Of a stretch of 64,000 nt of DNA, positions 3,168-37,169 are shown in pieces. Made by a program: the position numbers and the translations under genes. Source of the DNA: Promethearchaeota archaeon (GTDB taxonomy: Archaea; Asgardarchaeota; Lokiarchaeia; Sigyniarchaeales; SOKP01); contig JAHPZI010000021.1 of the NCBI GenBank assembly GCA_019058295.1, forward strand, positions 169,167-233,166, written 5' to 3'. The notes under the pieces are model-generated. The model was not told where the DNA came from and searched no databases. It saw only the letters and a list, made by a program, of their open reading frames with translations. Position 1 is the stretch's first letter; the number at the start of each line of letters is the position of its first letter.

Positions 3168-6100
3168 TAGAGAATAAAGCAAAACGAAAATTAAAAATAT
3201 TATTATTATTATCAGCATTATTCGCTTTACAAATTACCATTTTAGCTGTAATAAACTATCCTTGGATAAAATATTATGATGATGATGAACTTCAAGATTT
3301 GAAAGAAGATATGATGGAATTTTCATATTCACACAAAAATTCTGATTCTGATCTTTTTATTGAACCTGAAATCGACGCAAACTTCCGTGCAATTGATTCA
3401 ATTGATTTTTCTCAGGTTAATCCATATTTAACCGATTTAATTTCTCCTAGGTCAATTAGTTATATTAAGGATTATGATGAGTTCTTTTTTGATTATTTAT
3501 TTGAAAAACAGAACAATAATGGTTCATTTTCTGATATTGGTGGGTTAGGCAACATGTTTTCAACTTATGAGGTAATAGAAATTATAGATTTATTAAATCC
3601 TACTTATTTTTATTTAAAATCCGATGAAATTGGGAAAATTTTAACTTATATCCAAAATTGTCTTGTAGAGAATGGATGGGGTTTTAAATATAATGAATAC
3701 GCCCCTTTACCCGATATTATATCTACATATTGTGCAATTCATATGGCTAATATATTTAACGCCAAATCCATTCTTAGTAATCCAAATATTACTAATTATG
3801 TAGAACTAAGCACTTGGGCTGGTGAACCTGTTGAGCAATTGTATTATAGAATTAAAGCTTATTTAGAATTAGGGCAAAAATTCAATCAATTTCAAAATGA
3901 TACTATTGCAAATTATCTTAAGAGTCTTAGAAACATCGATGGTGGATACTCTAACGTTGGAGGAGCCAACGTTCAATCTACTTTTTATGCATTATCATCA
4001 ATGTATAGTTTAAATATTATGCCAGATGAAGCTAATGAAACACTTCAGTTTGTCCTTAATTGTGGGAAGTTAGATGGAGGTTTTGGATCAGATCCTTATT
4101 TGAACAGTAGTTCAGATTTTACATCTGGATGGGCTGCCATGAAATCAATAGATTTACTCAAAGATAAGGTTAATTTACCAGGTGTGAATATCGAAACCTA
4201 TATTCAAAATTATTATAACTGGTTATACACCCATCAAGCAAAGAACGGATTATTTGGGCAAACTTCACTTGAAGCAAATTATTTAGGAGCATTATCGATA
4301 TATCTCGTCGAGCCTGATAATTTTACTGATTATGTTGATATAGATAATATGTGGGACTATGTTGAAGATTGTTATAATAAAGGAGATGGAGGGTTTAGCT
4401 CTCAACCTGGTGGAAGTACAAGTTTATTAGCAACTTATCATGCAATTAATCTTTATGAAATATTACTTATTTATTCAGATATTTCTCTTCCTGATAGAAA
4501 AGATATCATTGATTATTTAGTTGATCTTCAAGATGATGATGGAGGATTTGAATTAGGGATTGATATAAATGAAATTATGTCACTTTTTGGACCATTAAGT
4601 CAAATGTTTACAGATCTAATTGAACCAGATGCACCAACTATTGAAAGTACATATTGGGGTGTAGTATCGCTAAAAATTTTAGATGCTTTGGATAAGATAG
4701 ATGAGGAAAATTTAATTCATTGGATTTCAGCAGCCCAAAGCGCTGATGGGGGTTTTCCAATAGTTTTAGGGTTTCATAGCGACACTATTTCAACTTATTT
4801 TGGATTAAAAACTTTAAAAATTTTAAAAATAGAACCTATGTCAACAATTGCGGCAATAGAATTTTTGAAAAAAGCCCAAGATGAAGATGGAAGCTTTGTT
4901 CCGATCCCTGTAATCTCAGATCTTTTTGAGTTTCCATCGACATTTTTCGTATCATATTTCGCAGCAATGGGACTATACGAATATGATTTTCAACCAGAAA
5001 ATATTGAAGATTTAATTGATTGGTACGAAGATTGTCTCAGTTCTAACACAGGAGGAATTGGAGACTTTCCTATGTTTGGTGGAGATTTAAGAAATACTCC
5101 ATATGGTATAATGCTCATTGAAGAATTAAGTTATGACCAAAGTTTTAACCCAAAACCTTGGAACGATTTAATTACTTCAATCTTTATTATAGAAATTTTA
5201 ATATTACTTTTATTTGGCATGCTAAAGATTATTTCCTTATTAAATGTAACAGTTTCCAAAAAATTGAAAGAAAGATTTGGAGTCGGTGAAAAATATAATA
5301 TATCATATTTGGAAAAGTTCCCAGCCATTTTATGCGATAGTGTAAATATTTTTGCTGGTAGAAAGTTAATAGTTGAGTCTGTGTCGATGAAATTAAAGCA
5401 TGGAGAAATTTTAGGAGTCTTAGGAGAGAGTGGTGCTGGTAAGTCAACATTTGTAAAATCACTTTTAGGAATGCGAAAATATAATGGAAAAATTCAGATT
5501 TATGGTATGAATGTCAAGAAGAAACATAAGAAGATGCGACCAATTTATGGTTATGTCCCCCAAGATCTTGGTAAAATTTACCTAAATTTCACGACTTTGC
5601 AAAATATAATGTATTTCGGAAAGCAATACGATATGACAGAGAAATTGATTATGCAAAAAACAAAGCGGATATTAACCGCTTTAGAAATTGAAGATAAAAT
5701 GCATGAAAAGGTTAAAAATTTATCTGGTGGTCAAAAAAGACGTGTATCCATTGCTATGGCATTAATTCATGATCCTATTATCATTTGGATGGATGAACCG
5801 ACTAGTGGATTGGATCCAGTTGTGAGGGAAAATCTTTGGCTAGCATTGACTAAAATTAATGAACAATTTAATTCAACCTTAATAGTTGTAACTCATTATC
5901 CTGAAGAATCTCAATTTTGCCACCGCGTTGCCATATTTGGGAGAATGAGAGGGATGATAGATTATGGCCGTCCTAAAGATTTATTAGCTCAATTACCAGG
6001 TAAAGGAAGAACTGTAGACTTATATTTTAATGAGGTAAATGAAAATGCGATTGAAAGGCTCGAATCCATTGAAGGTATTGATAAAGCTCTTGAAAATAAA

Positions 6101-6265
6101 GCGGGAACTGATTTTTCTTTACTTTCCGATTTGAATATAAACTCGATAGAAGAAAAAATTAAATTAAATTTTGGTAATGATTCTATTAAAGATATAAATC
6201 AGAACGATACAAAGATGGAACAATATTTTAGATATAAAGCGATGGAGGTTCCAAAATTAGAATGA
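3167..6265 (+). CDS. Membrane-anchored alpha/alpha-toroid (prenyltransferase/squalene-cyclase-like repeats) fused to ABC ATPase
   Basis: Repeats such as 'LRNIDGGYSNVGGANVQSTFYALSSMYSL', 'KLDGGFGSDPYLNSSSDFTSGWAAMKSIDLL', 'SADGGFPIVLGFHSDTISTYFGLKTLKIL'; then TM 'LITSIFIIEILILLLFGMLKIISLL'; then ABC ATPase (GESGAGKST, VPQD, LSGGQKRR, IIWMDEP, THYPEE). Frame is open upstream of called TTG 3299 to 3161 and encodes a TM helix (KRKLKILLLLSALFALQITILAVINYPW). Proposed start ATA 3167, 7 nt after AGGTG. Confidence 0.82.
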   Translation: MENKAKRKLKILLLLSALFALQITILAVINYPWIKYYDDDELQDLKEDMMEFSYSHKNSDSDLFIEPEIDANFRAIDSIDFSQVNPYLTDLISPRSISYIKDYDEFFFDYLFEKQNNNGSFSDIGGLGNMFSTYEVIEIIDLLNPTYFYLKSDEIGKILTYIQNCLVENGWGFKYNEYAPLPDIISTYCAIHMANIFNAKSILSNPNITNYVELSTWAGEPVEQLYYRIKAYLELGQKFNQFQNDTIANYLKSLRNIDGGYSNVGGANVQSTFYALSSMYSLNIMPDEANETLQFVLNCGKLDGGFGSDPYLNSSSDFTSGWAAMKSIDLLKDKVNLPGVNIETYIQNYYNWLYTHQAKNGLFGQTSLEANYLGALSIYLVEPDNFTDYVDIDNMWDYVEDCYNKGDGGFSSQPGGSTSLLATYHAINLYEILLIYSDISLPDRKDIIDYLVDLQDDDGGFELGIDINEIMSLFGPLSQMFTDLIEPDAPTIESTYWGVVSLKILDALDKIDEENLIHWISAAQSADGGFPIVLGFHSDTISTYFGLKTLKILKIEPMSTIAAIEFLKKAQDEDGSFVPIPVISDLFEFPSTFFVSYFAAMGLYEYDFQPENIEDLIDWYEDCLSSNTGGIGDFPMFGGDLRNTPYGIMLIEELSYDQSFNPKPWNDLITSIFIIEILILLLFGMLKIISLLNVTVSKKLKERFGVGEKYNISYLEKFPAILCDSVNIFAGRKLIVESVSMKLKHGEILGVLGESGAGKSTFVKSLLGMRKYNGKIQIYGMNVKKKHKKMRPIYGYVPQDLGKIYLNFTTLQNIMYFGKQYDMTEKLIMQKTKRILTALEIEDKMHEKVKNLSGGQKRRVSIAMALIHDPIIIWMDEPTSGLDPVVRENLWLALTKINEQFNSTLIVVTHYPEESQFCHRVAIFGRMRGMIDYGRPKDLLAQLPGKGRTVDLYFNEVNENAIERLESIEGIDKALENKAGTDFSLLSDLNINSIEEKIKLNFGNDSIKDINQNDTKMEQYFRYKAMEVPKLE

Positions 6266-8025: not shown

Positions 8026-8850
8026 GTGAGTAAAAAAATGATAAAAAGTTTTTACATAATGAAACAAAATGGATTGTTGATATATTCAAAGAATTACACG
8101 AAAGAAGACTTTGAAGATAATATCATGATTGGTTTTTTTGCTTCAATCGCAAATTTTAGCAGAGAGGCCTTACGGAGTGTGATAAAATATATCGATTTGG
8201 GTCAAGATAATAAATTAATATTAGCTGAACAACAAGATGAAAAATTAGTGGCTGCAGCAATAGTTAATTCTTCAGACGATAATGACCTTATTACTAAAGT
8301 TCTTAATAACATCATGCACGAAATTATCATTATGTTTTCACCAGATTATGAATCTGACAAAATAGATATAAACGAAATGGAAAAAATAATAGATGGAAAT
8401 ATAAAAAATAAAACTAGCTTATCTACAATAAAAAGACTTGTTCTCTCGTGGATTATTTTAGTACCTATTACCATCTTAATTGCCATCTTAAATCTAATGG
8501 CAACTTCGTATTATTTTCAATACATTTTTTTTGAAGAGCGCACATATTCTCAAGAAGAATTAATTACTGAAGTAATTCCTGAAGTAATGGTTATATCAAT
8601 GGTAATTGTAGTAATTGTTTTTGTACTTCCAAATCTTATCTCCGGCTATATTACTTTAAATCGGAATTTAGCATTTTTAAATTCGGGGTTATATCTTGTA
8701 GTAATACTCATTGCCTATTTATATTCAGTAGATCCGCTATTTTTCTTTGTTATTCTTTTCTATTTACCTGCTGCTATTTTCACATCAAATGTTTTTGCAT
8801 ATATTGGTTTTAGATTAGGAATTAAAAAAAAAATTGTAAAAAAAAAATAA
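8026..8850 (+). CDS. Longin/roadblock-like N-terminal domain plus ~4 TM helices
   Basis: 'SFYIMKQNGLLIYSKNYTKEDFEDNIMIGFFASIANFSREAL...' resembles the Asgard longin-like pattern; C-terminal hydrophobic helices. 12 nt after the previous gene. Confidence 0.65.
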   Translation: MSKKMIKSFYIMKQNGLLIYSKNYTKEDFEDNIMIGFFASIANFSREALRSVIKYIDLGQDNKLILAEQQDEKLVAAAIVNSSDDNDLITKVLNNIMHEIIIMFSPDYESDKIDINEMEKIIDGNIKNKTSLSTIKRLVLSWIILVPITILIAILNLMATSYYFQYIFFEERTYSQEELITEVIPEVMVISMVIVVIVFVLPNLISGYITLNRNLAFLNSGLYLVVILIAYLYSVDPLFFFVILFYLPAAIFTSNVFAYIGFRLGIKKKIVKKK

Positions 8851-8867: not shown

Positions 8868-10232
8868 TTACTTTTCTTCTGATACTTTTACAAATTTAAG
8901 GACCAATAGTCCCAGTAGCATAATAATCCCCATAGCAAGTAAACCTAAACCCCACGCGTATTTACCAATCACATCAGCACTCAGTAAAATAGCTCCAAAA
9001 ATTATAGGCCCTAAGGATGCCGATGCCTTTCCACTTATGCTTGTAAAGCCAAAATACTCCCCAAATTTTTCTTTAGGTGAGATCCTTGTCACCATGATTC
9101 TGTTTGCGGTCCAAGTGCCCCCAAGTGCGGGTCCAGCGACGACCCCCATTATAATACTAAGCATGAAAGGATAATTTAAGCCAATATCGATATAACGAAA
9201 GGCAAAAATTAAATAAATACCTAATATCAGAGAGATTGCCCATAAAAAGCATACTAAATAAAAGCAAATTTTTGGACCATGTTTTTCTCCAAACTTTCCA
9301 ACGAAATAAGTAAAGATTACAGCTGAAAATGTTGCTATTATTATGAAAAGCACACCAAATATATCAGAAGCTTTACCTCCTGTTCCAATAATAAGACCAT
9401 CAGTTATAAGAGGCATCATAAAGATAACTAAAGTCTGTGCGATATTACCAATTAAAAAATACGCAAATATATAGATGACCATTGGTTTATGTTGTTTTAT
9501 ATCCTTAAGTGTGGCTTTTAATTGTCTGAAGGAATCACCAATTCTTTTACCAACGGGAGGAATTTGTCCTGTTTTTTGTTTTTCACGAACTATGAAAAAT
9601 GGAATCATCAGAACGAGAAAAAGAACCATGGGTAAAACAAATGTTATCCAATAACCAGCGTAACCGTATGAAAGATCTCCTTGAGTTGGATCACTTACGA
9701 CATCACCCCACATAATCATTAATGGTAGCAGAACAATTAAAGAGATAATAGTACCAAAATATCCCCATGCAATCCCAAACCCAGAGACTTTTCCTATATC
9801 TTCTTTTTTAGCAATAAAAGGAATCATGGCATCGTAGAAAATCAGACTTAATTGATAAGAAACATTCGCAAGGACGTAAAAGATTAGTACAACGATTAGA
9901 CTATGGAAAAAACCGAGTAGACTCGCAAAAAGAATGCAAAGTCCGCCCAAACTTATAACATACGGTTTCCGTTTCCCACTTTGATCACCAAAGGCGCCAA
10001 CGATAGGAACTGTAATCGCTAATCCTGCTTGCATAAGACCTTGAACAAGCCCAAAAATAAAGCTTGCTTGACCATAAGTTATTCCATCTTCCAGCTGAGC
10101 AATGACCATTATATATCGAAAAATGATTAAGCTTACAATTACCATTGAATAAATCGTATTTGCCAAATCATACATAGCCCAGAAAAATACATTTTTTTTA
10201 TCAGTTTTAGTTTCTACTTCCACTTCATTCAT
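8868..10232 (-). CDS. MFS transporter, UMF1/Atg22-like
   Basis: 12-TM pattern; 'FFWAMYDLANTIYSMVI', 'VGAFGDQSGKRKPYV', 'GGTWTANRIMVTRISPKEKFGEYFGF'. Confidence 0.85.
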   Translation of the reverse strand: MNEVEVETKTDKKNVFFWAMYDLANTIYSMVIVSLIIFRYIMVIAQLEDGITYGQASFIFGLVQGLMQAGLAITVPIVGAFGDQSGKRKPYVISLGGLCILFASLLGFFHSLIVVLIFYVLANVSYQLSLIFYDAMIPFIAKKEDIGKVSGFGIAWGYFGTIISLIVLLPLMIMWGDVVSDPTQGDLSYGYAGYWITFVLPMVLFLVLMIPFFIVREKQKTGQIPPVGKRIGDSFRQLKATLKDIKQHKPMVIYIFAYFLIGNIAQTLVIFMMPLITDGLIIGTGGKASDIFGVLFIIIATFSAVIFTYFVGKFGEKHGPKICFYLVCFLWAISLILGIYLIFAFRYIDIGLNYPFMLSIIMGVVAGPALGGTWTANRIMVTRISPKEKFGEYFGFTSISGKASASLGPIIFGAILLSADVIGKYAWGLGLLAMGIIMLLGLLVLKFVKVSEEK

Positions 10233-10336
10233 ATTGAATCATCTTACGGTATTTCTAATTTAAAAATATGGTTTAATTTATTTAAAGATGATAATAAAAA
10301 AAAGAAATTAAATAATGAGAAAACTATAATTATTTA

Positions 10337-11488
10337 ATGGAGTATAATCTAAGAGATTTTTTTCTTCCACCATTATTCATATCGTTGGGGCTTGGTTATC
10401 AAATTTTCATATATTTTTTATATCAATATTATAAGGCTAAAAAAGAGAAATTAGAATTTACTGAAATTTTACTAGCTTATGGATTAATATTTGGATTAAC
10501 TCTAACAGGATTTTTCATTCGTATAATAAATCTTTATTATACAAGAGAAATTAATATTGAAATCTTTCATTTCTTAACGAAAATAACTTTTCTTATCCTT
10601 TATTCAGCTTTAATGTTGTTTTTCATTATAATATCAACCAAATCCTTCCAAAAAATCATAAACTCAATTTTTACAAAAATTTTAGCAATTTTATTAATTA
10701 TACCAATGATTACAGTCTTTTTATTTCAACCTGAAAACCTTTTATTTGGTCTCATTTCTGGAATAACTCTCGGGATATCATATTCATATATCTTTTATTT
10801 TCATACTAGACTGATTAAAATTTCTACAGGTGATATAAAAAAAAGATTAAACCTCATACTTTTAGGATTAACATTATGTGCGATACAACATTTTATTGGA
10901 GGATATTTCCCCAGTTATGTATTATTTAAAGGTTATAGTGAGCACCTTCAATTAATTTCTGCTCCAATATTTGTTTGTGGATTAATTATTGTTTTTTTAG
11001 GCGTTTTTAGATTTCCCGCCTTTCTTGAATTTGGATGGAAAGAATCTCTACTATATGTTTTTATTATAAATCAAAGTAATTTAAAAGTAATTTACACATT
11101 TGATTTCAAAGAAATCATAAATCAACGTGGAAAACCAATAAATAAACTTTCGGATATCAATGAAATTAAGCAGTTTTTTTCAAGCGGGATTATTGGAATC
11201 AATAAGATTATATCAGGTATAACAAACTCAAAATCTGAATTTATTGAATCAATTAGACAAAAAGATTTCATAATTCTTTTGAATCGTGGAGATGAGCCTC
11301 AATCTTATATAATTTATTGTATATTAGTTAGTAAAGATATGAACAGCCTTAGATATTTTTTAAAAACAATTAAAAAGGAATTTGAACAGATCTATAAAAA
11401 TATACTCATTAATATGAATGATCTAGAAGGCAAAGAAGAAAAAATATTCTCAAATTTTGATGCGATTATGAAAAAATTAATTGAATAA
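10337..11488 (+). CDS. Multi-TM (~7-8) protein with C-terminal longin-like cytosolic domain
   Basis: N-terminal TM helices, then 'FPAFLEFGWKESLLYVFIINQSNLKVIYTFDFKE...FFSSGIIGINKIISGI...IILLNRG...YIIYCILVSKDMNSLRYFLKTIKKEFEQIY'. Confidence 0.65.
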   Translation: MEYNLRDFFLPPLFISLGLGYQIFIYFLYQYYKAKKEKLEFTEILLAYGLIFGLTLTGFFIRIINLYYTREINIEIFHFLTKITFLILYSALMLFFIIISTKSFQKIINSIFTKILAILLIIPMITVFLFQPENLLFGLISGITLGISYSYIFYFHTRLIKISTGDIKKRLNLILLGLTLCAIQHFIGGYFPSYVLFKGYSEHLQLISAPIFVCGLIIVFLGVFRFPAFLEFGWKESLLYVFIINQSNLKVIYTFDFKEIINQRGKPINKLSDINEIKQFFSSGIIGINKIISGITNSKSEFIESIRQKDFIILLNRGDEPQSYIIYCILVSKDMNSLRYFLKTIKKEFEQIYKNILINMNDLEGKEEKIFSNFDAIMKKLIE

Positions 11489-11497
11489 GAAAAATTT

Positions 11498-12586
11498 ATG
11501 GGTATTAAATTGATTTTAAATGAATTCCCTATAAAAGGACCCTTAAAAGAACCATTATTAGTATTAGAATCATTAATAGTTTTTTCTTTTATAGAACTGG
11601 CAGTTATATTTTGGATGAGAATTAGAAAAAGTGAATTAAAAAAATCACTGGAAAAAGGATATATCTGGTTATTTCTTGGTTATTCTCTTTTGAGGTTTTT
11701 TACAATAGTTGGGGATTATTATGTTGATGGTTTTCATTTTAGAACTTTATTTTTAAATGTAGGCTATTTAATTCAAATGGCATTTTTAATTAATTTTGTA
11801 AGAATTATGGAAAATTACAAAGTTTTTATTAGAAAATACTTATTTACTAAGATTTGTTTGGTTTTAATTTTTATTTATTTCATAGTTTTATTCATTGATA
11901 GTAATTATGTGATCTTTTTTTTAATTTCATTTTGGATATTTTTTTTAGTATTCTTTATAATTTATTTGAAGGATTTAGGATCAAAATTTAATAATAAAAT
12001 AGATTTAAGAAGTTTTAAACTAAATTTGCTTAAATTTTATATAGGAATGATTTTAATAGTTGTAGGATCTGCTACAACTATGGACTTTGTGATCGAGATT
12101 TTTGGATTTGGTATCCGCCTTATAGGAAATATCCTTCAACTAATTGGGGTAATTTTTATTTCATTTTTCTTTTTTTCTATTCCTTCTTATAGTGAATATG
12201 ATTGGCAAGATAAAATTATTAGCGTTTTTATAATGCATAAATCTGGTCTTTTTATCTATAAAAAGTCTTTTAGAGAAAAAGCCTCTCCAATTGATGAATC
12301 AGTCATTACAGGTGCATTGACAACTATAGAAATGATGTTAGAAAAAGTAAGCCACATTGATAGTATTTCTATAATTAAAAAGAAAGAAAAAATTCTAATT
12401 TTTCAACCAGGGAGATTTATTTATGGGGTTTTAATATGTGAGGAAGAGTTAGAATCCCTTAAAATTTTATTGAGTAAATTTATTAGTAAAATTGAAACAA
12501 TTTATTCTAATGTTCTTGAGGATTGGGATAGAAATTTAAATGTTTTTACGCCAATTGAAGGCATCGCGAAGGAAATTTTTTATTAA
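11498..12586 (+). CDS. Multi-TM (~7-8) protein with C-terminal longin-like domain (paralogue of preceding ORF)
   Basis: Same layout: TM helices, 'FSIPSYSEYDWQDKIISVFIMHKSGLFIYKKSFREK...ALTTIEMMLEKVSHIDSISIIKKKEKILIFQPGRFIYGVLICEEELESLKILLSKFISKIETIY'. Confidence 0.65.
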   Translation: MGIKLILNEFPIKGPLKEPLLVLESLIVFSFIELAVIFWMRIRKSELKKSLEKGYIWLFLGYSLLRFFTIVGDYYVDGFHFRTLFLNVGYLIQMAFLINFVRIMENYKVFIRKYLFTKICLVLIFIYFIVLFIDSNYVIFFLISFWIFFLVFFIIYLKDLGSKFNNKIDLRSFKLNLLKFYIGMILIVVGSATTMDFVIEIFGFGIRLIGNILQLIGVIFISFFFFSIPSYSEYDWQDKIISVFIMHKSGLFIYKKSFREKASPIDESVITGALTTIEMMLEKVSHIDSISIIKKKEKILIFQPGRFIYGVLICEEELESLKILLSKFISKIETIYSNVLEDWDRNLNVFTPIEGIAKEIFY

Positions 12587-12748
12587 TAGCAAAATTTTCA
12601 ATCAGAAATATTATTTCAGTTATAAGAATTATGGACTTTAAAATATGGTTAATAAAAACAAGTATTACTTATCAATAAATATTAAATTTTTAAATAAAAA
12701 TCAATATTAGAAATATGAGTACAATTTAAGAGTTCTTGGAGGATAACT

Positions 12749-13288
12749 ATTTCATCGGATTATTCTTTTAAAATCTGTATATTTGGAGATACGGGAGTTG
12801 GGAAAACCTCTTTAATTTCTAGATATCTAGGTGAACAGTTCGAAAAAGATATTGGAAAAGATATGGAAAGATCAATGGGAGTGGATATTAATCATAAAAA
12901 TATAGTAGTAGATGATATAAAGGTTTCATTGCAGATATGGGATTTAGTAGGTGAGGAACGATTTAGAACTATGTTACCTTTTTATTTACGTGGATCATCT
13001 GGTGGTATTTTCATGTATGACACTACTCGGGAGGAAAGTTTGAACAAGATAGATGAATTGCTTAATATATTTAAGGAAAGTAATGCTGGAATGCAGGTTC
13101 CAATTATAATGGTTGGAGGAAAATCAGATCTTCAGGAAATGAGAACTGTTTCTATTAAAAAAGCGGATAGTATCTCAAAATCCCATGATTTTTATGATTA
13201 TATTGAATGCTCTTCTAAAACGGGGGAAAATGTTGAGTTCTTATTCAATACACTAACTAGACTAATTTTAAAGAAGATTGGTTTGTAA
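12749..13288 (+). CDS. Ras/Rab/Arf-superfamily small GTPase
   Basis: With the upstream frame: ISSDYSFKICIFGDTGVGKTSLISRYLGEQFEKD...; P-loop GDTGVGKTS, switch II DLVGEERFR, GKSD at the NKxD position, SSK at the SAK position. No ATG/GTG/TTG between the in-frame stop at 12716 and the P-loop; GGAGG is 6 nt before ATT 12749. Confidence 0.88.
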   Translation: MSSDYSFKICIFGDTGVGKTSLISRYLGEQFEKDIGKDMERSMGVDINHKNIVVDDIKVSLQIWDLVGEERFRTMLPFYLRGSSGGIFMYDTTREESLNKIDELLNIFKESNAGMQVPIIMVGGKSDLQEMRTVSIKKADSISKSHDFYDYIECSSKTGENVEFLFNTLTRLILKKIGL

Positions 13289-17860: not shown

Positions 17861-20800
17861 GTGATAAAAGAGAGTTTTATTTTTAAGGAAGACTTGGTTG
17901 AAGGGAAATCATTATATCCTTATGTCACGATATTTAAGAAGGAACCGTTTAAATCCTTTTTTTCAGTGAAAAGGAGAGAGATTGGACGATTTTATATTAG
18001 TAATTATGATGAGGTCATAAAATATTATCAATTTTTTAAGAAAAAGATACTAAATGAAAGAATTTTTAACATCGAAAATGTTTACTATTTCCTCTTATTA
18101 AGAAAGTATTTGAAAGAGGATAAGAAAGAAAATAAGAAAGAATTATATGATTATATTAAAAAATGTATATTTACAAAAGGGAATGATAAATTAGGATTTA
18201 AATTTTCTCCCTATTCAGATCAAAAAGAACCGGATATTTGGTCCACTTATTTTGCTTTAGCAAGCATGAAATTATTAGGAGTTTTGAAGGAATTTCTTGC
18301 TTCAAAGGGACAAAAACATGTCGCCCGAGAAATTAAAAACTTTGTCCTCCCTCACAATAAAGGTGATAGATTCTTACACTGTTTTGATGAAAATTGCGAA
18401 ATTTGCAAAAAGACATCCTCTGCAAGAACACTATATTTCGCATTGGAGATTTTAAGGCTTTTAGGAATAGATACAAGATTAAGTAAAGACTCGTTTCGCT
18501 CCCATTTAACTGATAAAAAGCGAGATCCATCGTTGGTTTTCAAGTTGTTATGTTTTAAGCTTTTGGATCTTGATTCTAATGTTAATGATAAAGCTCTTCA
18601 ATATCTTCATCAATTTCAAAAAGAAAATGGCGGTTTTAGTTTTAAAAAAATAGATGGAAGAATAAATACAACATTTTGGGTAGTTTATGCTCTCGATATA
18701 TATTCTTGGTTAATAGATTATAATCCTATTGCAATCTATTCTTTTATAAACTCTAAACTAAATGAAATATTAAGGGAGGATTCTCATCGAAACTTTATTA
18801 AAATGATGGAACTCTCCAAATTGATTATATTATTATCAATAATTTGGAAAAAATTCATTTCCGAAATTGAAAGAGTTATATTCAAGAAACTAGAACAAGA
18901 TAAATATATTGATTTTAATCAAATTCAAGCTCCCTTAGGCTTAACTCATGGAATTAATGAGGTTATTTCTTATATCAATCACAATTATACGTTTAATTTG
19001 AAATTACAAGATAATACTAAAGAATTTCTCAATTTTACTCGTAATCTTACTCAGGGCCAAAGGATGATAGTTGAAGATTTTTATGAGCAACTTAGCAACA
19101 ATAGAGACGTTTCTCTTTCTAAAATCATGAAAAAATATAAAGTTTCTAACGCTTTTGAACATCTAAAATTAAAGGAAGACATTTTTCCTTTAATAAATAA
19201 AATGATAGAGAAGAATTTTTTTAAAGGTAAAATTACAAAAAAAGGCATCCGTAAAAAATATTACTTTCATCTCGACGTATTATTAAAAAAAATAATTATT
19301 TCTGACACTAATATAATTTTGGCTCAACTACTTAATGAAAAAGAGAAATTGAAGGAAATTAAAAACAATATTTTTAACATGATTTTAAAATTGAAGAATG
19401 TATCCTCTCAAATAAAAGAAGAAATCGAATCTTATTTAATTCTAAATGAAATTGATCTCGCTAAAGAAAGGTTAAAATACATTATAAGAGACGCTTTAAT
19501 GGAAGCCGATTTCTTAAACGAAAATATTGAAAATTCATTTAATGAAGATTTATATTATACTAATATTCAAACTGTTTTTAATTCAGAGATAACCCGCTGG
19601 AACGAATTATATTCCATTTTAAGTAAAGAACTGAAGGCCACAGAATTGTTTCTGTTGAAGAAAATTACAGAAAAGGAAGATATAAGAAAGTTTAATAATA
19701 CAATTGAGAATTTAGAAAATAAAATTTTCATATTTAAAGAATCAATCAATAGAAATATAGATGAATTTAGAAATAATTTAAGAGAAGTCAGTGAAAAATA
19801 TTCAGATACAGAATTATCTGTTGTTATTCAAGATTTTGAAAAGATTAGAATGAATGTAAGCGAATTTGATAAAAAATTTTATGAAATTTCTCAAAAAATA
19901 ATCACAGAAGAACCTGAGATTATACAAAATCGAAAGAAAATAATAAATCAGTGGATTGAAATAAAGAAGGAATTAGATGACATCTTTAACTATTATTCTA
20001 ATGGCTTTACCTTCTTCAAAGAGAATGAGACAAAAATTAATGATCTGAAAAATACAATTATTCAAGATATTGAACTTATAAGTGAAAAAACCAAGCTTAA
20101 AACAAAAGAAAGTCAATTTAAAGAAGCATTTGATTTTATTAAAAAGGAAGCAGATAATTTATTAAAAACTAAAACAAGTGAAATTAAAGAGCTCCAAAAG
20201 ATCATTAATAAAGCAATAATACCTAAACAGAGATTATATTTGTTATATAAAGAATTACATAATAGGCTAGAGGATTTAGAGGAAAATCTACTTACAGAAA
20301 TAGGACAACATGTTAAATCCCTAAAAAATAAAGTTGTAGAAGAAAGAAATAGAACAAAAATAGAGGATTTTGATAATTTTGTTTCACAAGAGATCTTTAA
20401 TTTCAAAGAGATCTTCAATAATTATAAAAAAAACATAGGTCAGTTAAGTGATAAAGGAGTTAAAGATATAATTAATGGATTTAATGATATTCAAAATAAG
20501 TTTAATGATGTAGATCGATTATATTTAAAAAAATTAAAAAAATGTAATGAATTAATTGAAAATTTTAACGAAAAATCCAATTTGACCATTATTCAATGGG
20601 ATAATTTTAAAAAATATTTTAATCACGAAATAGATATCTTAAAAGAAGAATACATCAATGAGATTATTACACGAAAAATTAATTCTATCTCAAACGAGAG
20701 AAAAACGAATACAATAAAAGTTATCGAATTAAAAAAGGAACTTGGCTTAAAATGTAATGATCTAATGTCTAGGATAAAAGAGATGATTGAGATTTCTAAA

Positions 20801-22303
20801 TTAAATGCAAAACTTTATGATGCCGAAAAATGTGTTTTATTATATACAGATCATTATTATAAAAACAAGGAATTAAAGAATTATATTGACAATAAATTAT
20901 TAAAATTAGTACGAGAGAGAATAGGGAAAATACTTGCCTTGTATGACTCCAGCATAAGAAAAAGAACATTAAGCGTAAATATATTAGAACTTCAAAATCG
21001 AATTAACGAGTTGAATTTTGAAGAAATTGTTCGAGAGCAATTTAAGCAAAAAGTCACGGAACTCCAAATCGATCAAACGCGAATGGAATTTATTGAGACT
21101 AAAAACTATTTTGAAGGTGTTTTAGAAAATAACATATTTGCAATAAATAAAATAAGAAGCAACCTTGAATTGTTTATTAATAAGCAAAATTTTATAACAC
21201 AGGAATTTAATGATTTGGAAACAGAGTTGAAGGCACAAAATTCAAAGATTTTCAAAGATATTGAGAAATCACATGGAGAATCGTATATTAAAATTAAGGA
21301 AAGCTTTGAAAATGAATGGAGAAAACTAGGAAATAAATTTGATCAAACTCAGCAAAGAATTGAAGAAGACTTAAAATCATCGTTAAGCAATATTAACGAT
21401 TCAAATAAAATGGGACTTGAACTTAGTGAATATTTTGTTAAGAAAAAAAGTGAGTTTTTAAAAGATTATAAAGATAAAAAAGAAAAAATTAGCACCGAAA
21501 TAATTATTTTAAAAGATGAGGCTTTCCTTGGAAAATTACTCAACTTCATTAACGAACGAAAGGTGCGTATAAGCCAAATGCTAGGAACACTCCAAATTAG
21601 AGTTGAAGAGGACATAGATGCACGAGAATTTAAGAGGGCCTCCTATAAGATAAATAAACGAGCAGACAATATCTATAAACATATAAAATTAATTAAAAAG
21701 AATATAAAGAATTTAACGAAAGAATTTAATAAATATTCCAAAGATTTTGAAACAAAAAGCAAATATATTTTAAAAGACTTTGAGAGGTTTCTCATCGAAT
21801 ATTATGAAGCTTTAACTGAAAAAATTAAAAGTTTAGAGCAATTAATAATTAAATCATATATATCAATGGCCATAAAAGCTGTGACTAATGAGTTTCTCAC
21901 GCTTAGTTTTTTAGCCAATGAGCTCAAAATAAAAAAGCATAATCTGCAAGAACATTTGATTTTCCTAATAAGCAGTGGCGAGTTAAAAGGCAAATATGAT
22001 CCGCGCTTGGGATTATATTATGAAAATCCTGATGTTTTAGATAAATTAGATGAGGACGAGTTAGAAGTTTTTAAGAAAATGAATTTCCGAGTTTATATGT
22101 TTTGGAAACGATTTAAAAGCTTTACTAGTTTATACGGTCCAATTATTGGTTTTTTTGCGTCTTTATTAGCAATAACTTATTATATTTTTATATTTTCTGG
22201 TGGGAATCCCGTCACCTTTGCAATTCCTATTTTGTTTGTCTTAGTAATCGTTTTTTATTTCTTTTTCAAAAGGGGCAAAGAAGAAAAAGTTAAGCTTGAA
22301 TGA
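17861..22303 (+). CDS. Giant toroid-repeat + coiled-coil protein with winged-helix-like segment and C-terminal TM helices
   Basis: N-terminal repeats ('EPDIWSTYFALASMKLLG', 'ENGGFSFKKIDGRINTTFWVVYALDIYSWL'), ~900 aa K/E-rich helical region, 'LTLSFLANELKIKKHNLQEHLIFLISSGELKGKYDPRLGLYY', then two TM helices. Confidence 0.75.
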   Translation: MIKESFIFKEDLVEGKSLYPYVTIFKKEPFKSFFSVKRREIGRFYISNYDEVIKYYQFFKKKILNERIFNIENVYYFLLLRKYLKEDKKENKKELYDYIKKCIFTKGNDKLGFKFSPYSDQKEPDIWSTYFALASMKLLGVLKEFLASKGQKHVAREIKNFVLPHNKGDRFLHCFDENCEICKKTSSARTLYFALEILRLLGIDTRLSKDSFRSHLTDKKRDPSLVFKLLCFKLLDLDSNVNDKALQYLHQFQKENGGFSFKKIDGRINTTFWVVYALDIYSWLIDYNPIAIYSFINSKLNEILREDSHRNFIKMMELSKLIILLSIIWKKFISEIERVIFKKLEQDKYIDFNQIQAPLGLTHGINEVISYINHNYTFNLKLQDNTKEFLNFTRNLTQGQRMIVEDFYEQLSNNRDVSLSKIMKKYKVSNAFEHLKLKEDIFPLINKMIEKNFFKGKITKKGIRKKYYFHLDVLLKKIIISDTNIILAQLLNEKEKLKEIKNNIFNMILKLKNVSSQIKEEIESYLILNEIDLAKERLKYIIRDALMEADFLNENIENSFNEDLYYTNIQTVFNSEITRWNELYSILSKELKATELFLLKKITEKEDIRKFNNTIENLENKIFIFKESINRNIDEFRNNLREVSEKYSDTELSVVIQDFEKIRMNVSEFDKKFYEISQKIITEEPEIIQNRKKIINQWIEIKKELDDIFNYYSNGFTFFKENETKINDLKNTIIQDIELISEKTKLKTKESQFKEAFDFIKKEADNLLKTKTSEIKELQKIINKAIIPKQRLYLLYKELHNRLEDLEENLLTEIGQHVKSLKNKVVEERNRTKIEDFDNFVSQEIFNFKEIFNNYKKNIGQLSDKGVKDIINGFNDIQNKFNDVDRLYLKKLKKCNELIENFNEKSNLTIIQWDNFKKYFNHEIDILKEEYINEIITRKINSISNERKTNTIKVIELKKELGLKCNDLMSRIKEMIEISKLNAKLYDAEKCVLLYTDHYYKNKELKNYIDNKLLKLVRERIGKILALYDSSIRKRTLSVNILELQNRINELNFEEIVREQFKQKVTELQIDQTRMEFIETKNYFEGVLENNIFAINKIRSNLELFINKQNFITQEFNDLETELKAQNSKIFKDIEKSHGESYIKIKESFENEWRKLGNKFDQTQQRIEEDLKSSLSNINDSNKMGLELSEYFVKKKSEFLKDYKDKKEKISTEIIILKDEAFLGKLLNFINERKVRISQMLGTLQIRVEEDIDAREFKRASYKINKRADNIYKHIKLIKKNIKNLTKEFNKYSKDFETKSKYILKDFERFLIEYYEALTEKIKSLEQLIIKSYISMAIKAVTNEFLTLSFLANELKIKKHNLQEHLIFLISSGELKGKYDPRLGLYYENPDVLDKLDEDELEVFKKMNFRVYMFWKRFKSFTSLYGPIIGFFASLLAITYYIFIFSGGNPVTFAIPILFVLVIVFYFFFKRGKEEKVKLE

Positions 22304-35945: not shown

Positions 35946-37169
35946 TCATTTTTTTCGAAATTTCTCGCTGTCTCTTCCTTTTTTTGGAATGACCTCTTCA
36001 CCTATTACTTCTTGTTCTCCTTCTTTTCTAAAAGGTTTTACGGGTTTAGACTCATCGAGCGCCATGTCACATGCCCAACACGCATTCTCCAGATTCACTA
36101 AGGCATTATAACATTTTTGGCAGTAAAATATTTCACATCCTCGGCATATAAAATTCATTCCTAGAATATTTCCCTTACATACCACACAAATTTTCTTTTC
36201 CTTAGATATTGATACTTCTTCTTCAGTGAGTTTTTGAGATTTAACGAACATAGCTAAGATGTCTGGGGCATCTTTATCTAATTCGTGTGATTGTTGGTGT
36301 TTTGCAAGTTTTACAATTTGATAGATAGAATAAGAAGTAAACAGGAGGAGCATGGTTTCGAAACCTAAAAGCATAAGGAGAAACTCAAATGGTAAATGTT
36401 TGGTTATAGCAATGCTTATAAACCATACAAATGTAGAGATAAAGTAGCCAGAGATCATTGTCCAGTAAAGTATAGACCGTCTAAAGTATTGCGGGCTAAT
36501 CCTTGTAGGGGCGATAAACACGAGAGATCCTATAATGTAAAAGATAGGGGCCAGTTCTATAGGAGTGATTTCAAGTTCTTTGACTACTTTAGAGTCGAAA
36601 CCCTGACCTATTATGACGAGCAAAAGTCCAAACACCATTATCATTGAGATGGCTTGATATTCAGCTCGAGATCTTTTAGCGAATATGAATAACATGAATG
36701 CAAGCATAGTAACATTTAGAAAAATTGCCACATACTCAACGTTTATAGCTAAATCAATGGGTAAAAAGAGGATTAAGAAGATTAACACAAAATTTATTAG
36801 TATTAGCAGATATCTCATTCGCTTAAGCAAGCTTTCAGCAAAAAAATACATAAAAGTAATACCAATTATATATGATATATGGGCCATTTTAACTAACATG
36901 AGATATGTTTGATTATTTGTATTATAAGTTCCATAAAAAGTAGTGCCAATAAAATTTCCGGGCACATATAAATCACTTATAAAGAAGAAAATCCTCATAA
37001 AAGCAATGCCTAAGAATGTAAATGAGATTCCTAAAAAAATCTTTTTTTCTTCACTTTTTTCTTTTTTTTGAGCTAGAACTATGAAGTAAATAGTTATGAG
37101 AAATAATATTGAAATTGACACTCCCCATAACGCACGTTCTATAGGATTATATATTGGAAAATTAGTCAT
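35946..37169 (-). CDS. Multi-TM protein with C-terminal RING/FYVE-like treble-clef zinc finger
   Basis: ~7-8 TM helices, then 'CVVCKGNILGMNFICRGCEIFYCQKCYNALVNLENACWACD' (C-x2-C-x10-C-x2-C-x4-C-x2-C-x10-C-x2-C). Confidence 0.75.
   Translation of the reverse strand: MTNFPIYNPIERALWGVSISILFLITIYFIVLAQKKEKSEEKKIFLGISFTFLGIAFMRIFFFISDLYVPGNFIGTTFYGTYNTNNQTYLMLVKMAHISYIIGITFMYFFAESLLKRMRYLLILINFVLIFLILFLPIDLAINVEYVAIFLNVTMLAFMLFIFAKRSRAEYQAISMIMVFGLLLVIIGQGFDSKVVKELEITPIELAPIFYIIGSLVFIAPTRISPQYFRRSILYWTMISGYFISTFVWFISIAITKHLPFEFLLMLLGFETMLLLFTSYSIYQIVKLAKHQQSHELDKDAPDILAMFVKSQKLTEEEVSISKEKKICVVCKGNILGMNFICRGCEIFYCQKCYNALVNLENACWACDMALDESKPVKPFRKEGEQEVIGEEVIPKKGRDSEKFRKK

What the first reader, a model, noticed from the sequence alone, without database searches (positions are those of the whole stretch)
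10337..13288. Two tandem multi-TM/longin-like fusion proteins next to a Ras/Rab-like GTPase: a candidate transmembrane GTPase-signalling module
Two paralogous receptors-in-layout (7-8 TM helices plus a C-terminal longin-like cytosolic domain) are followed on the same strand by a small GTPase. Longin and roadblock folds are established GTPase regulators or GEF subunits (e.g. Mon1-Ccz1, Ragulator, MglB). The layout suggests a 7TM-coupled GTPase switch analogous to, but not homologous with, GPCR signalling.
Basis: partly seen in the sequence, partly recalled or inferred. Interest (0 to 1): 0.77.

Follow-up and report, generated by a model that had tools for sequence, protein, structure and literature searches.

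The report
Membrane longin pair with Rab-like GTPase
Lokiarchaea carry a recurring gene set of two seven-helix membrane proteins, each ending in a GTPase-platform (longin) domain, often next to a Rab-like switch protein that has no lipid anchor, which suggests how these relatives of eukaryotes might control small GTPases at a membrane.

Summary
Window genes A (10337-11488) and B (11498-12586) are full-length homologues. AlphaFold models give each seven TM helices plus a C-terminal longin fold, and charge distribution puts the longin in the cytosol. A and B form a tandem pair across Lokiarchaeia (54 pairs collected). A Rab-like GTPase lies within 300 bp of a pair in 12 of 29 sequence clusters (expected 0.2-0.4), in four gene arrangements and from at least three GTPase lineages; it is by far the commonest neighbour. 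None of 26 linked GTPases has a C-terminal cysteine. Related longin domains also cap PAS/histidine-kinase-like, MFS-like and TPR proteins, as an exchangeable output domain would. Best reading: A and B form a membrane-embedded longin heterodimer that recruits and regulates a cognate non-lipidated Rab-like GTPase, in the manner of TRAPP or Mon1-Ccz1 longin pairs. Whether it is a ligand-gated receptor-GEF (the GPCR analogy) is open: no ligand, exchange activity or interface was tested. I found no published description. Two paralogous pairs in the same genome have no GTPase beside them.

The parts
10337..11488 (+). gene A, 383 aa: 7TM + C-terminal longin protein (first of the tandem pair)
   Evidence: ORF; family alignment A2; AF2 model; directly upstream of B in 54 collected pairs
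10337..11008 (+). A, seven-helix membrane region (residues 1-224), N-out/C-in
   Evidence: AF2 helices 2-37,43-69,74-99,110-129,135-162,165-188,198-223; K+R bias
11036..11485 (+). A, cytosolic longin domain (residues 234-383)
   Evidence: AF2 secondary structure; Foldseek VAMP7 longin, Bet5/Trs23 complex, Mon1-Ccz1; best PDB sequence hits VAMP7 longin, not significant
11498..12586 (+). gene B, 362 aa: 7TM + C-terminal longin protein, starts 9 bp after A stops
   Evidence: ORF; alignment A1; AF2 model
11546..12178 (+). B, seven-helix membrane region (residues 17-227)
   Evidence: AF2 helices 17-44,50-75,79-107,115-133,135-165,171-193,204-227; conserved D73, R82, D196, R207 near the outer loops
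12203..12580 (+). B, cytosolic longin domain (residues 236-361)
   Evidence: AF2; Foldseek AP sigma, COPI zeta, MglB, LAMTOR, TRAPP Trs23; Pfam Sybindin/Fuz_longin among members; PDB profile best hit 3cue_A Trs23 E 0.008
12738..12742 (+). Shine-Dalgarno-like GGAGG of the GTPase gene
   Evidence: sequence; conserved in L048 and L049
12749..13288 (+). Rab-like small GTPase, about 179 aa, probable ATT start
   Evidence: Pfam Ras 2e-38; PDB Rabs E down to 7e-29; no ATG/GTG/TTG in frame upstream of the P-loop
12785..12808 (+).
12938..12958 (+). GTPase switch II WDLVGEE, Glu at the usual catalytic Gln position

Best explanation
A and B are two subunits of an integral-membrane longin heterodimer. Their seven-helix bundles sit in the cytoplasmic membrane and present a pair of longin domains to the cytosol. 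The longin pair forms a platform that binds the Rab-like GTPase encoded nearby, which has no lipid anchor, and so brings it to the membrane and controls its nucleotide state, most likely as a guanine-nucleotide exchange platform as in TRAPP (Bet5-Trs23) and Mon1-Ccz1. The membrane bundle may also sense something and pass the signal to the longin pair. Shown here: fold, topology, A-then-B pairing, recurrent linkage to Rab-like GTPases, absence of a C-terminal Cys, and reuse of the longin domain on other input modules. Inferred: A-B dimerisation, GTPase binding, direction of regulation, signal sensing.
For: Longin fold of both. B profile best solved match is the TRAPP longin subunit Trs23 (3cue, E 0.008), and B members touch Pfam Sybindin and Fuz_longin_1. 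Each A gene located had a B directly downstream on the same strand, gap mostly 0-40 bp (54 pairs). GTPase within 300 bp in 16 of 44 pairs with known flanks and in 12 of 29 65%-identity clusters, expected 0.2-0.4; GTPase density 21 per 100 kb within 1 kb against roughly 0-7 per 100 kb at 2-8 kb. Four arrangements: downstream same strand, downstream convergent, upstream divergent, upstream same strand. Linked GTPases belong to at least three lineages. Rab-like GTPase is the commonest neighbour family, 28 loci against 9 for the next. A free longin-like protein is a further recurrent neighbour in 6 loci. None of 26 linked GTPases has a C-terminal Cys. The longin also caps PAS/HisKA, MFS-like and TPR proteins.
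Against: No complex was modelled and nothing was assayed. Two paralogous pairs of this genome (L009, L010) and several lineages (L054/L055/L058, L057, L071/L072, L079, L083, L207/L210/L211) have no GTPase beside them. Single 7TM-longin proteins in a more distant Asgard family (f8) also lack one. Longin domains have roles outside GTPase control (SNAREs, coats). The switch I Lys used by Mon1-Ccz1-type GEFs is Glu in the window GTPase and Lys in only a minority of linked ones (read; mechanism in PMC12383261).
Confidence: 0.6

Rival explanations
1. Receptor-GEF (a stronger form of the best explanation): the seven-helix bundle of B and/or A binds an extracellular or membrane ligand and switches the longin pair so that it loads the GTPase with GTP. 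This is a GPCR-like signalling unit of unrelated sequence, with a small GTPase in place of a heterotrimeric G protein.
For: N-out/C-in seven-helix topology; the longin is attached to PAS/HisKA, MFS-like and TPR inputs, as an exchangeable output domain would be; conserved charged residues D73, R82, D196, R207 at or near the outer side of B; lineage-specific expansion to about seven tandem copies plus two GTPases in L067; A bundle weakly resembles rhodopsin/GPCR folds.
Against: No ligand-binding site or sensor family recognised; Foldseek matches to GPCRs are not significant (E 0.03-0.16) and seven-helix bundles resemble one another generically; no exchange assay.
Confidence: 0.3
2. Effector or scaffold: the GTP-bound GTPase binds the longin pair to regulate what the membrane bundle does (transport, lipid handling, assembly); information flows from GTPase to membrane protein.
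For: Some longin/roadblock platforms act as scaffolds rather than exchange factors (Ragulator, as reviewed in PMC10933270); MFS-like longin fusions could be GTPase-regulated transporters; switch II Gln is replaced in 16 of 26 linked GTPases, compatible with slow hydrolysis.
Against: No enzyme or transporter signature in the 7TM region; unlinked GTPases of the same clade have the same Gln change, so it is not special to linkage.
Confidence: 0.2
3. A and B act without the GTPase: the longin domains serve A-B assembly or other partners, and the GTPase is a neighbour of convenience.
For: More than half of the clusters have no GTPase within 300 bp; these genomes are rich in small GTPases, dozens per genome.
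Against: Enrichment is far above the background density, recurs in four arrangements and at least three GTPase lineages, and is specific among neighbours.
Confidence: 0.15

Closest known systems
TRAPP core longin heterodimer Bet5-Trs23 (TRAPPC1-TRAPPC4), GEF for Ypt1/Rab1
   Same: Two different longin domains; Rab-family partner; B's best profile match among solved structures is Trs23
   Different: TRAPP is soluble and peripheral and needs Bet3-type subunits; here each longin is fused to seven TM helices. Exchange activity not tested.
Tri-longin Rab GEFs: Mon1-Ccz1, Fuzzy-Inturned, BLOC-3
   Same: Heteromeric longin pairs acting on Rabs; Foldseek hit of A to Mon1-Ccz1, Pfam Fuz_longin_1 in two B members
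   Different: Three longins per chain, no integral membrane region; their catalytic switch I Lys is absent from the window GTPase
MglA-MglB and Ragulator-Rag (roadblock platforms)
   Same: Roadblock/longin dimers binding small GTPases; Ragulator holds non-lipidated Rag GTPases at a membrane
   Different: Roadblock fold with an N-terminal helix, not longin; anchoring is by lipid or partner proteins, not by a 7TM bundle
G-protein-coupled receptors
   Same: Seven TM helices, N-out/C-in, associated with a GTPase
   Different: No detectable sequence homology; GTPase is Rab-like, not a heterotrimeric alpha subunit; the platform is a fused longin domain; ligand dependence unknown
Asgard longin and Rab proteins described by Tran et al. 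2024 (PMC10933270)
   Same: Same protein classes; Asgard Rabs without a prenylation motif
   Different: That paper states that MK-D1 GTPase genes do not generally lie in operons with roadblock or longin genes and, in the passages searched, describes no membrane-embedded longin pair; here a conserved linkage is shown

Membership tests
Longin-domain protein | beta-beta-alpha-beta-beta-beta-alpha-alpha fold of about 120-140 residues | tested here: met
   AF2 secondary structure of A and B; Foldseek hits to AP sigma, COPI zeta, VAMP7 and TRAPP longins
Longin-domain protein | significant match to a curated longin family | tested here: inconclusive
   Sybindin E 0.0035, Fuz_longin_1 0.0099 at best, weak; none for A
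TRAPP / tri-longin Rab GEF | two different longin subunits made together | tested here: met
   A and B distinct subfamilies in tandem; physical dimerisation not testable here
TRAPP / tri-longin Rab GEF | Rab-family substrate | tested here: inconclusive
   Rab-like GTPase linked in 12 of 29 clusters; binding not shown
TRAPP / tri-longin Rab GEF | catalytic Lys/Arg in the substrate's switch I (Mon1-Ccz1 type) | tested here: not met
   Glu at that position in the window GTPase; Lys in only about 8 of 26 linked GTPases (read; mechanism PMC12383261)
TRAPP / tri-longin Rab GEF | accelerates nucleotide exchange | not testable with these tools
   needs purified proteins
GPCR | seven TM helices, N outside, C inside | tested here: met
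GPCR | homology to a GPCR family | tested here: not met
   no GPCR family among the Pfam hits listed for A, B or their 78 family members; Foldseek E 0.03-0.16 only for A
Rab-like small GTPase | complete G domain with P-loop, switches and G4/G5 motifs | tested here: met
   GDTGVGKT, WDLVGEE, GKSD, SSK; Gln-to-Glu and Asn-to-Gly departures noted
Rab-like small GTPase | C-terminal prenylation cysteines (eukaryotic Rab) | tested here: not met
   no Cys in the last 8 residues in any of 26 linked GTPases

The most novel reading that the evidence does not exclude
Lokiarchaea have a ligand-responsive receptor-GEF system unrelated in sequence to GPCRs: a seven-helix heterodimer whose two fused longin domains directly load a cognate, non-lipidated Rab-like GTPase at the membrane. 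It would be a prokaryotic transmembrane GTPase-signalling pathway that uses the same GTPase-platform fold as the eukaryotic TRAPP and Mon1-Ccz1 complexes.
Probability: 0.3. Interest if true: 0.95.

Novelty: new variant of a known kind. Interest (0 to 1): 0.76.

Why it matters
Asgard genomes carry dozens of Rab-like GTPases but no prenylation motif or prenylation machinery, and it is an open question whether these GTPases ever work at membranes and who regulates them. Dey, Thattai and Baum (PMC4917890) proposed looking at operon neighbours, membrane proteins among them, to find out; Tran et al. (PMC10933270) found operons of little help in MK-D1 and called regulator-GTPase matching difficult. 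Here is a recurrent, statistically strong match between particular Rab-like GTPases and an integral-membrane longin pair. It gives named pairs for binding, exchange and localisation tests, and suggests that longin-pair control of Rab-like GTPases at a membrane may predate lipidated Rabs.

Tried and rejected
Roadblock fold for the C-terminal domains: rejected, since the AF2 order of elements is longin. GPCR or rhodopsin homology: not supported, matches only for A and not significant. Known 7TM sensor families: single weak 7TMR-DISM_7TM hits among members, E 0.0073 and 0.15, and one DUF3522 hit, E 0.15, not pursued. A single origin of GTPase linkage: not supported, the tree needs several changes and at least three lineages. 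The GTPase's Gln-to-Glu change as a mark of linkage: rejected, unlinked relatives share it. Alignment-based scans of genome contigs failed for lack of conserved stretches; a single-protein scan found three named records. A longin-only alignment failed on wrong coordinates and was replaced by HMMs built in Python. Literature searches found no description of 7TM-longin proteins; subscription papers were not covered.

Full report
What is there. The window lies in a Lokiarchaeia-type Asgard genome: G000 is unnamed, but close relatives in the named collection are Candidatus Lokiarchaeota and Lokiarchaeia MAGs. Gene A (10337-11488, 383 aa) and gene B (11498-12586, 362 aa) are separated by 9 bp and are homologous along their length: an iterative search started from either one recovers the other. 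Neither matches a Pfam family at its cut-off. The third gene is a complete Rab-like GTPase. Its only plausible start is an ATT at 12749, six bases after GGAGG, kept in two orthologues. The ATG-started ORF at 12863 would lack the P-loop.

Fold and topology. AF2 models built on 41 (B) and 37 (A) sequences show seven TM helices and a C-terminal strand-strand-helix-three strands-helices domain, which is the longin order. Nearly all of B's listed matches in the PDB library are longin or roadblock-fold proteins or complexes containing them: COPI zeta, AP sigma, MglB, LAMTOR and TRAPP Trs23. A matches VAMP7 longin, Bet5-Trs23 and Mon1-Ccz1, and its membrane bundle weakly resembles rhodopsins and GPCRs, E 0.03-0.16. 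A sequence profile of B finds Trs23 first among solved chains, E 0.008. Averaged over the families, the loops inside carry more Lys/Arg than the loops outside if the N-terminus is outside and the longin is in the cytosol.

The pair is the unit. The same A-then-B pair occurs three times in this genome; the C8 copy is interrupted by a masked stretch. All 38 A genes located in the first set of loci had a B directly downstream on the same strand; 54 pairs were collected in all. Some lineages have extra copies: a third B-like gene in L062 and L068, and an array of about seven in L067. Full-length 7TM-longin relatives reach other Asgard families; 96 of 228 genomes of the phylum have a match at 1e-12, in the f8, f10 and f21 families mostly as single genes.

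The GTPase linkage. Counting all pairs with known flanks, 16 of 44 have a Rab-like GTPase within 300 bp and 22 within 1.5 kb. After clustering at 65% identity, 12 of 29 clusters have one within 300 bp, against an expectation of 0.2-0.4 from a density of one such GTPase per 40-82 kb. Inside the fetched loci the density falls from 21 per 100 kb in the first kilobase to about 0-7 per 100 kb at 2-8 kb. Pairs with a GTPase but a short flank were kept in the denominator, a small bias. The linked GTPase sits downstream on the same strand (window, L048, L049), downstream convergent (L052, L066), upstream divergent (L053, L056, L061), or upstream on the same strand (L064, L073, L074, L076, L077, L200-L202). 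In L066 two GTPases alternate with two pairs. In the GTPase tree most linked members fall in one clade, while L066/L067 and L074/L059/L060 form separate lineages; on the B tree the label also needs several changes. Rab-like GTPase is the commonest neighbour family, found in 28 loci against 9 for the next. A free longin-like protein of about 150 aa recurs in six loci.

What the parts suggest. None of 26 linked GTPases has a C-terminal Cys, in line with the reported absence of prenylation in Asgards (PMC10933270, PMC4917890). The longin domain of this family is also found at the end of multi-PAS/HisKA proteins and a PAS-HisKA-HATPase protein, of MFS-like 12-TM proteins, of TPR proteins, and within very large proteins with one to three TM segments. 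That pattern fits an exchangeable output domain and makes a GTPase-regulating role more likely, though it proves none. B keeps charged residues near its outer loops (D73, R82, D196, R207), while A keeps fewer. This would suit B as the sensing subunit, which is a guess.

Mechanism. I take as most likely (0.6) a membrane-embedded longin heterodimer that recruits and regulates a cognate non-lipidated Rab-like GTPase. Within that, receptor-driven exchange (about 0.3 overall) and effector or scaffold use (about 0.2) cannot be separated here. The Mon1-Ccz1 catalytic mechanism is not simply shared: the switch I Lys is Glu in the window GTPase and Lys in a minority of linked ones (read; mechanism in PMC12383261). 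Against the whole idea stand the pairs without a neighbouring GTPase, two of them in this same genome; these may use GTPases encoded elsewhere.

Novelty. Longin pairs as Rab platforms are known, and Asgard longins and Rabs are known. Integral-membrane 7TM-longin pairs with linked Rab-like GTPases were not found in the open literature searched, and the closest paper says GTPase-regulator operons are not general in MK-D1. I therefore file this as a new variant of a known kind, with a categorically new reading (a receptor-GEF) left open.

Noticed in passing
12738-12808: The GTPase gene seems to use an ATT start codon behind a GGAGG motif, conserved in two orthologues (L048, L049).
   Followed up: partly
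8026-8850 +: 274-aa protein with an N-terminal longin-like domain (E 3e-7 to the B longin HMM) followed by about four TM helices, next to an ABC/prenyltransferase-toroid gene set; a differently built membrane longin.
   Followed up: partly
35946-37169 -: 407-aa membrane protein whose N-terminal half matches the B membrane region (E 2e-12, but strong composition bias) and which ends in a Cys-rich, zinc-binding-like domain instead of a longin.
   Followed up: partly
3299-6265 +: Fusion of prenyltransferase alpha-alpha toroid repeats with an ABC-transporter ATPase domain.
   Followed up: no
17861-22303 +: 1480-aa protein: prenyltransferase toroid repeats, long coiled-coil-like stretch, PCI-like domain and C-terminal TM helices.
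   Followed up: no
L066 and L067 (same relative, G054): L066 alternates two GTPases with two A-B pairs; L067 has about seven tandem 7TM-longin genes followed by two GTPases on the other strand.
   Followed up: partly
L013:2022-4926: Several roadblock-like small proteins beside a GTPase-like gene in the window's own genome, not far from a PAS-HisKA-longin protein.
   Followed up: no
L076:5293-6858 and 10102-11655: Two 517-521 aa proteins with a central Ras domain flank a GTPase-A-B set.
   Followed up: no
L064, L071, L072, L073, L200, L201: A free longin-like protein of about 150 aa lies beside A-B pairs, with or without a GTPase.
   Followed up: partly
L223:241-9336: 3031-aa protein with one longin domain at 2430-2553 and about three TM segments; no Pfam hit.
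   Followed up: no
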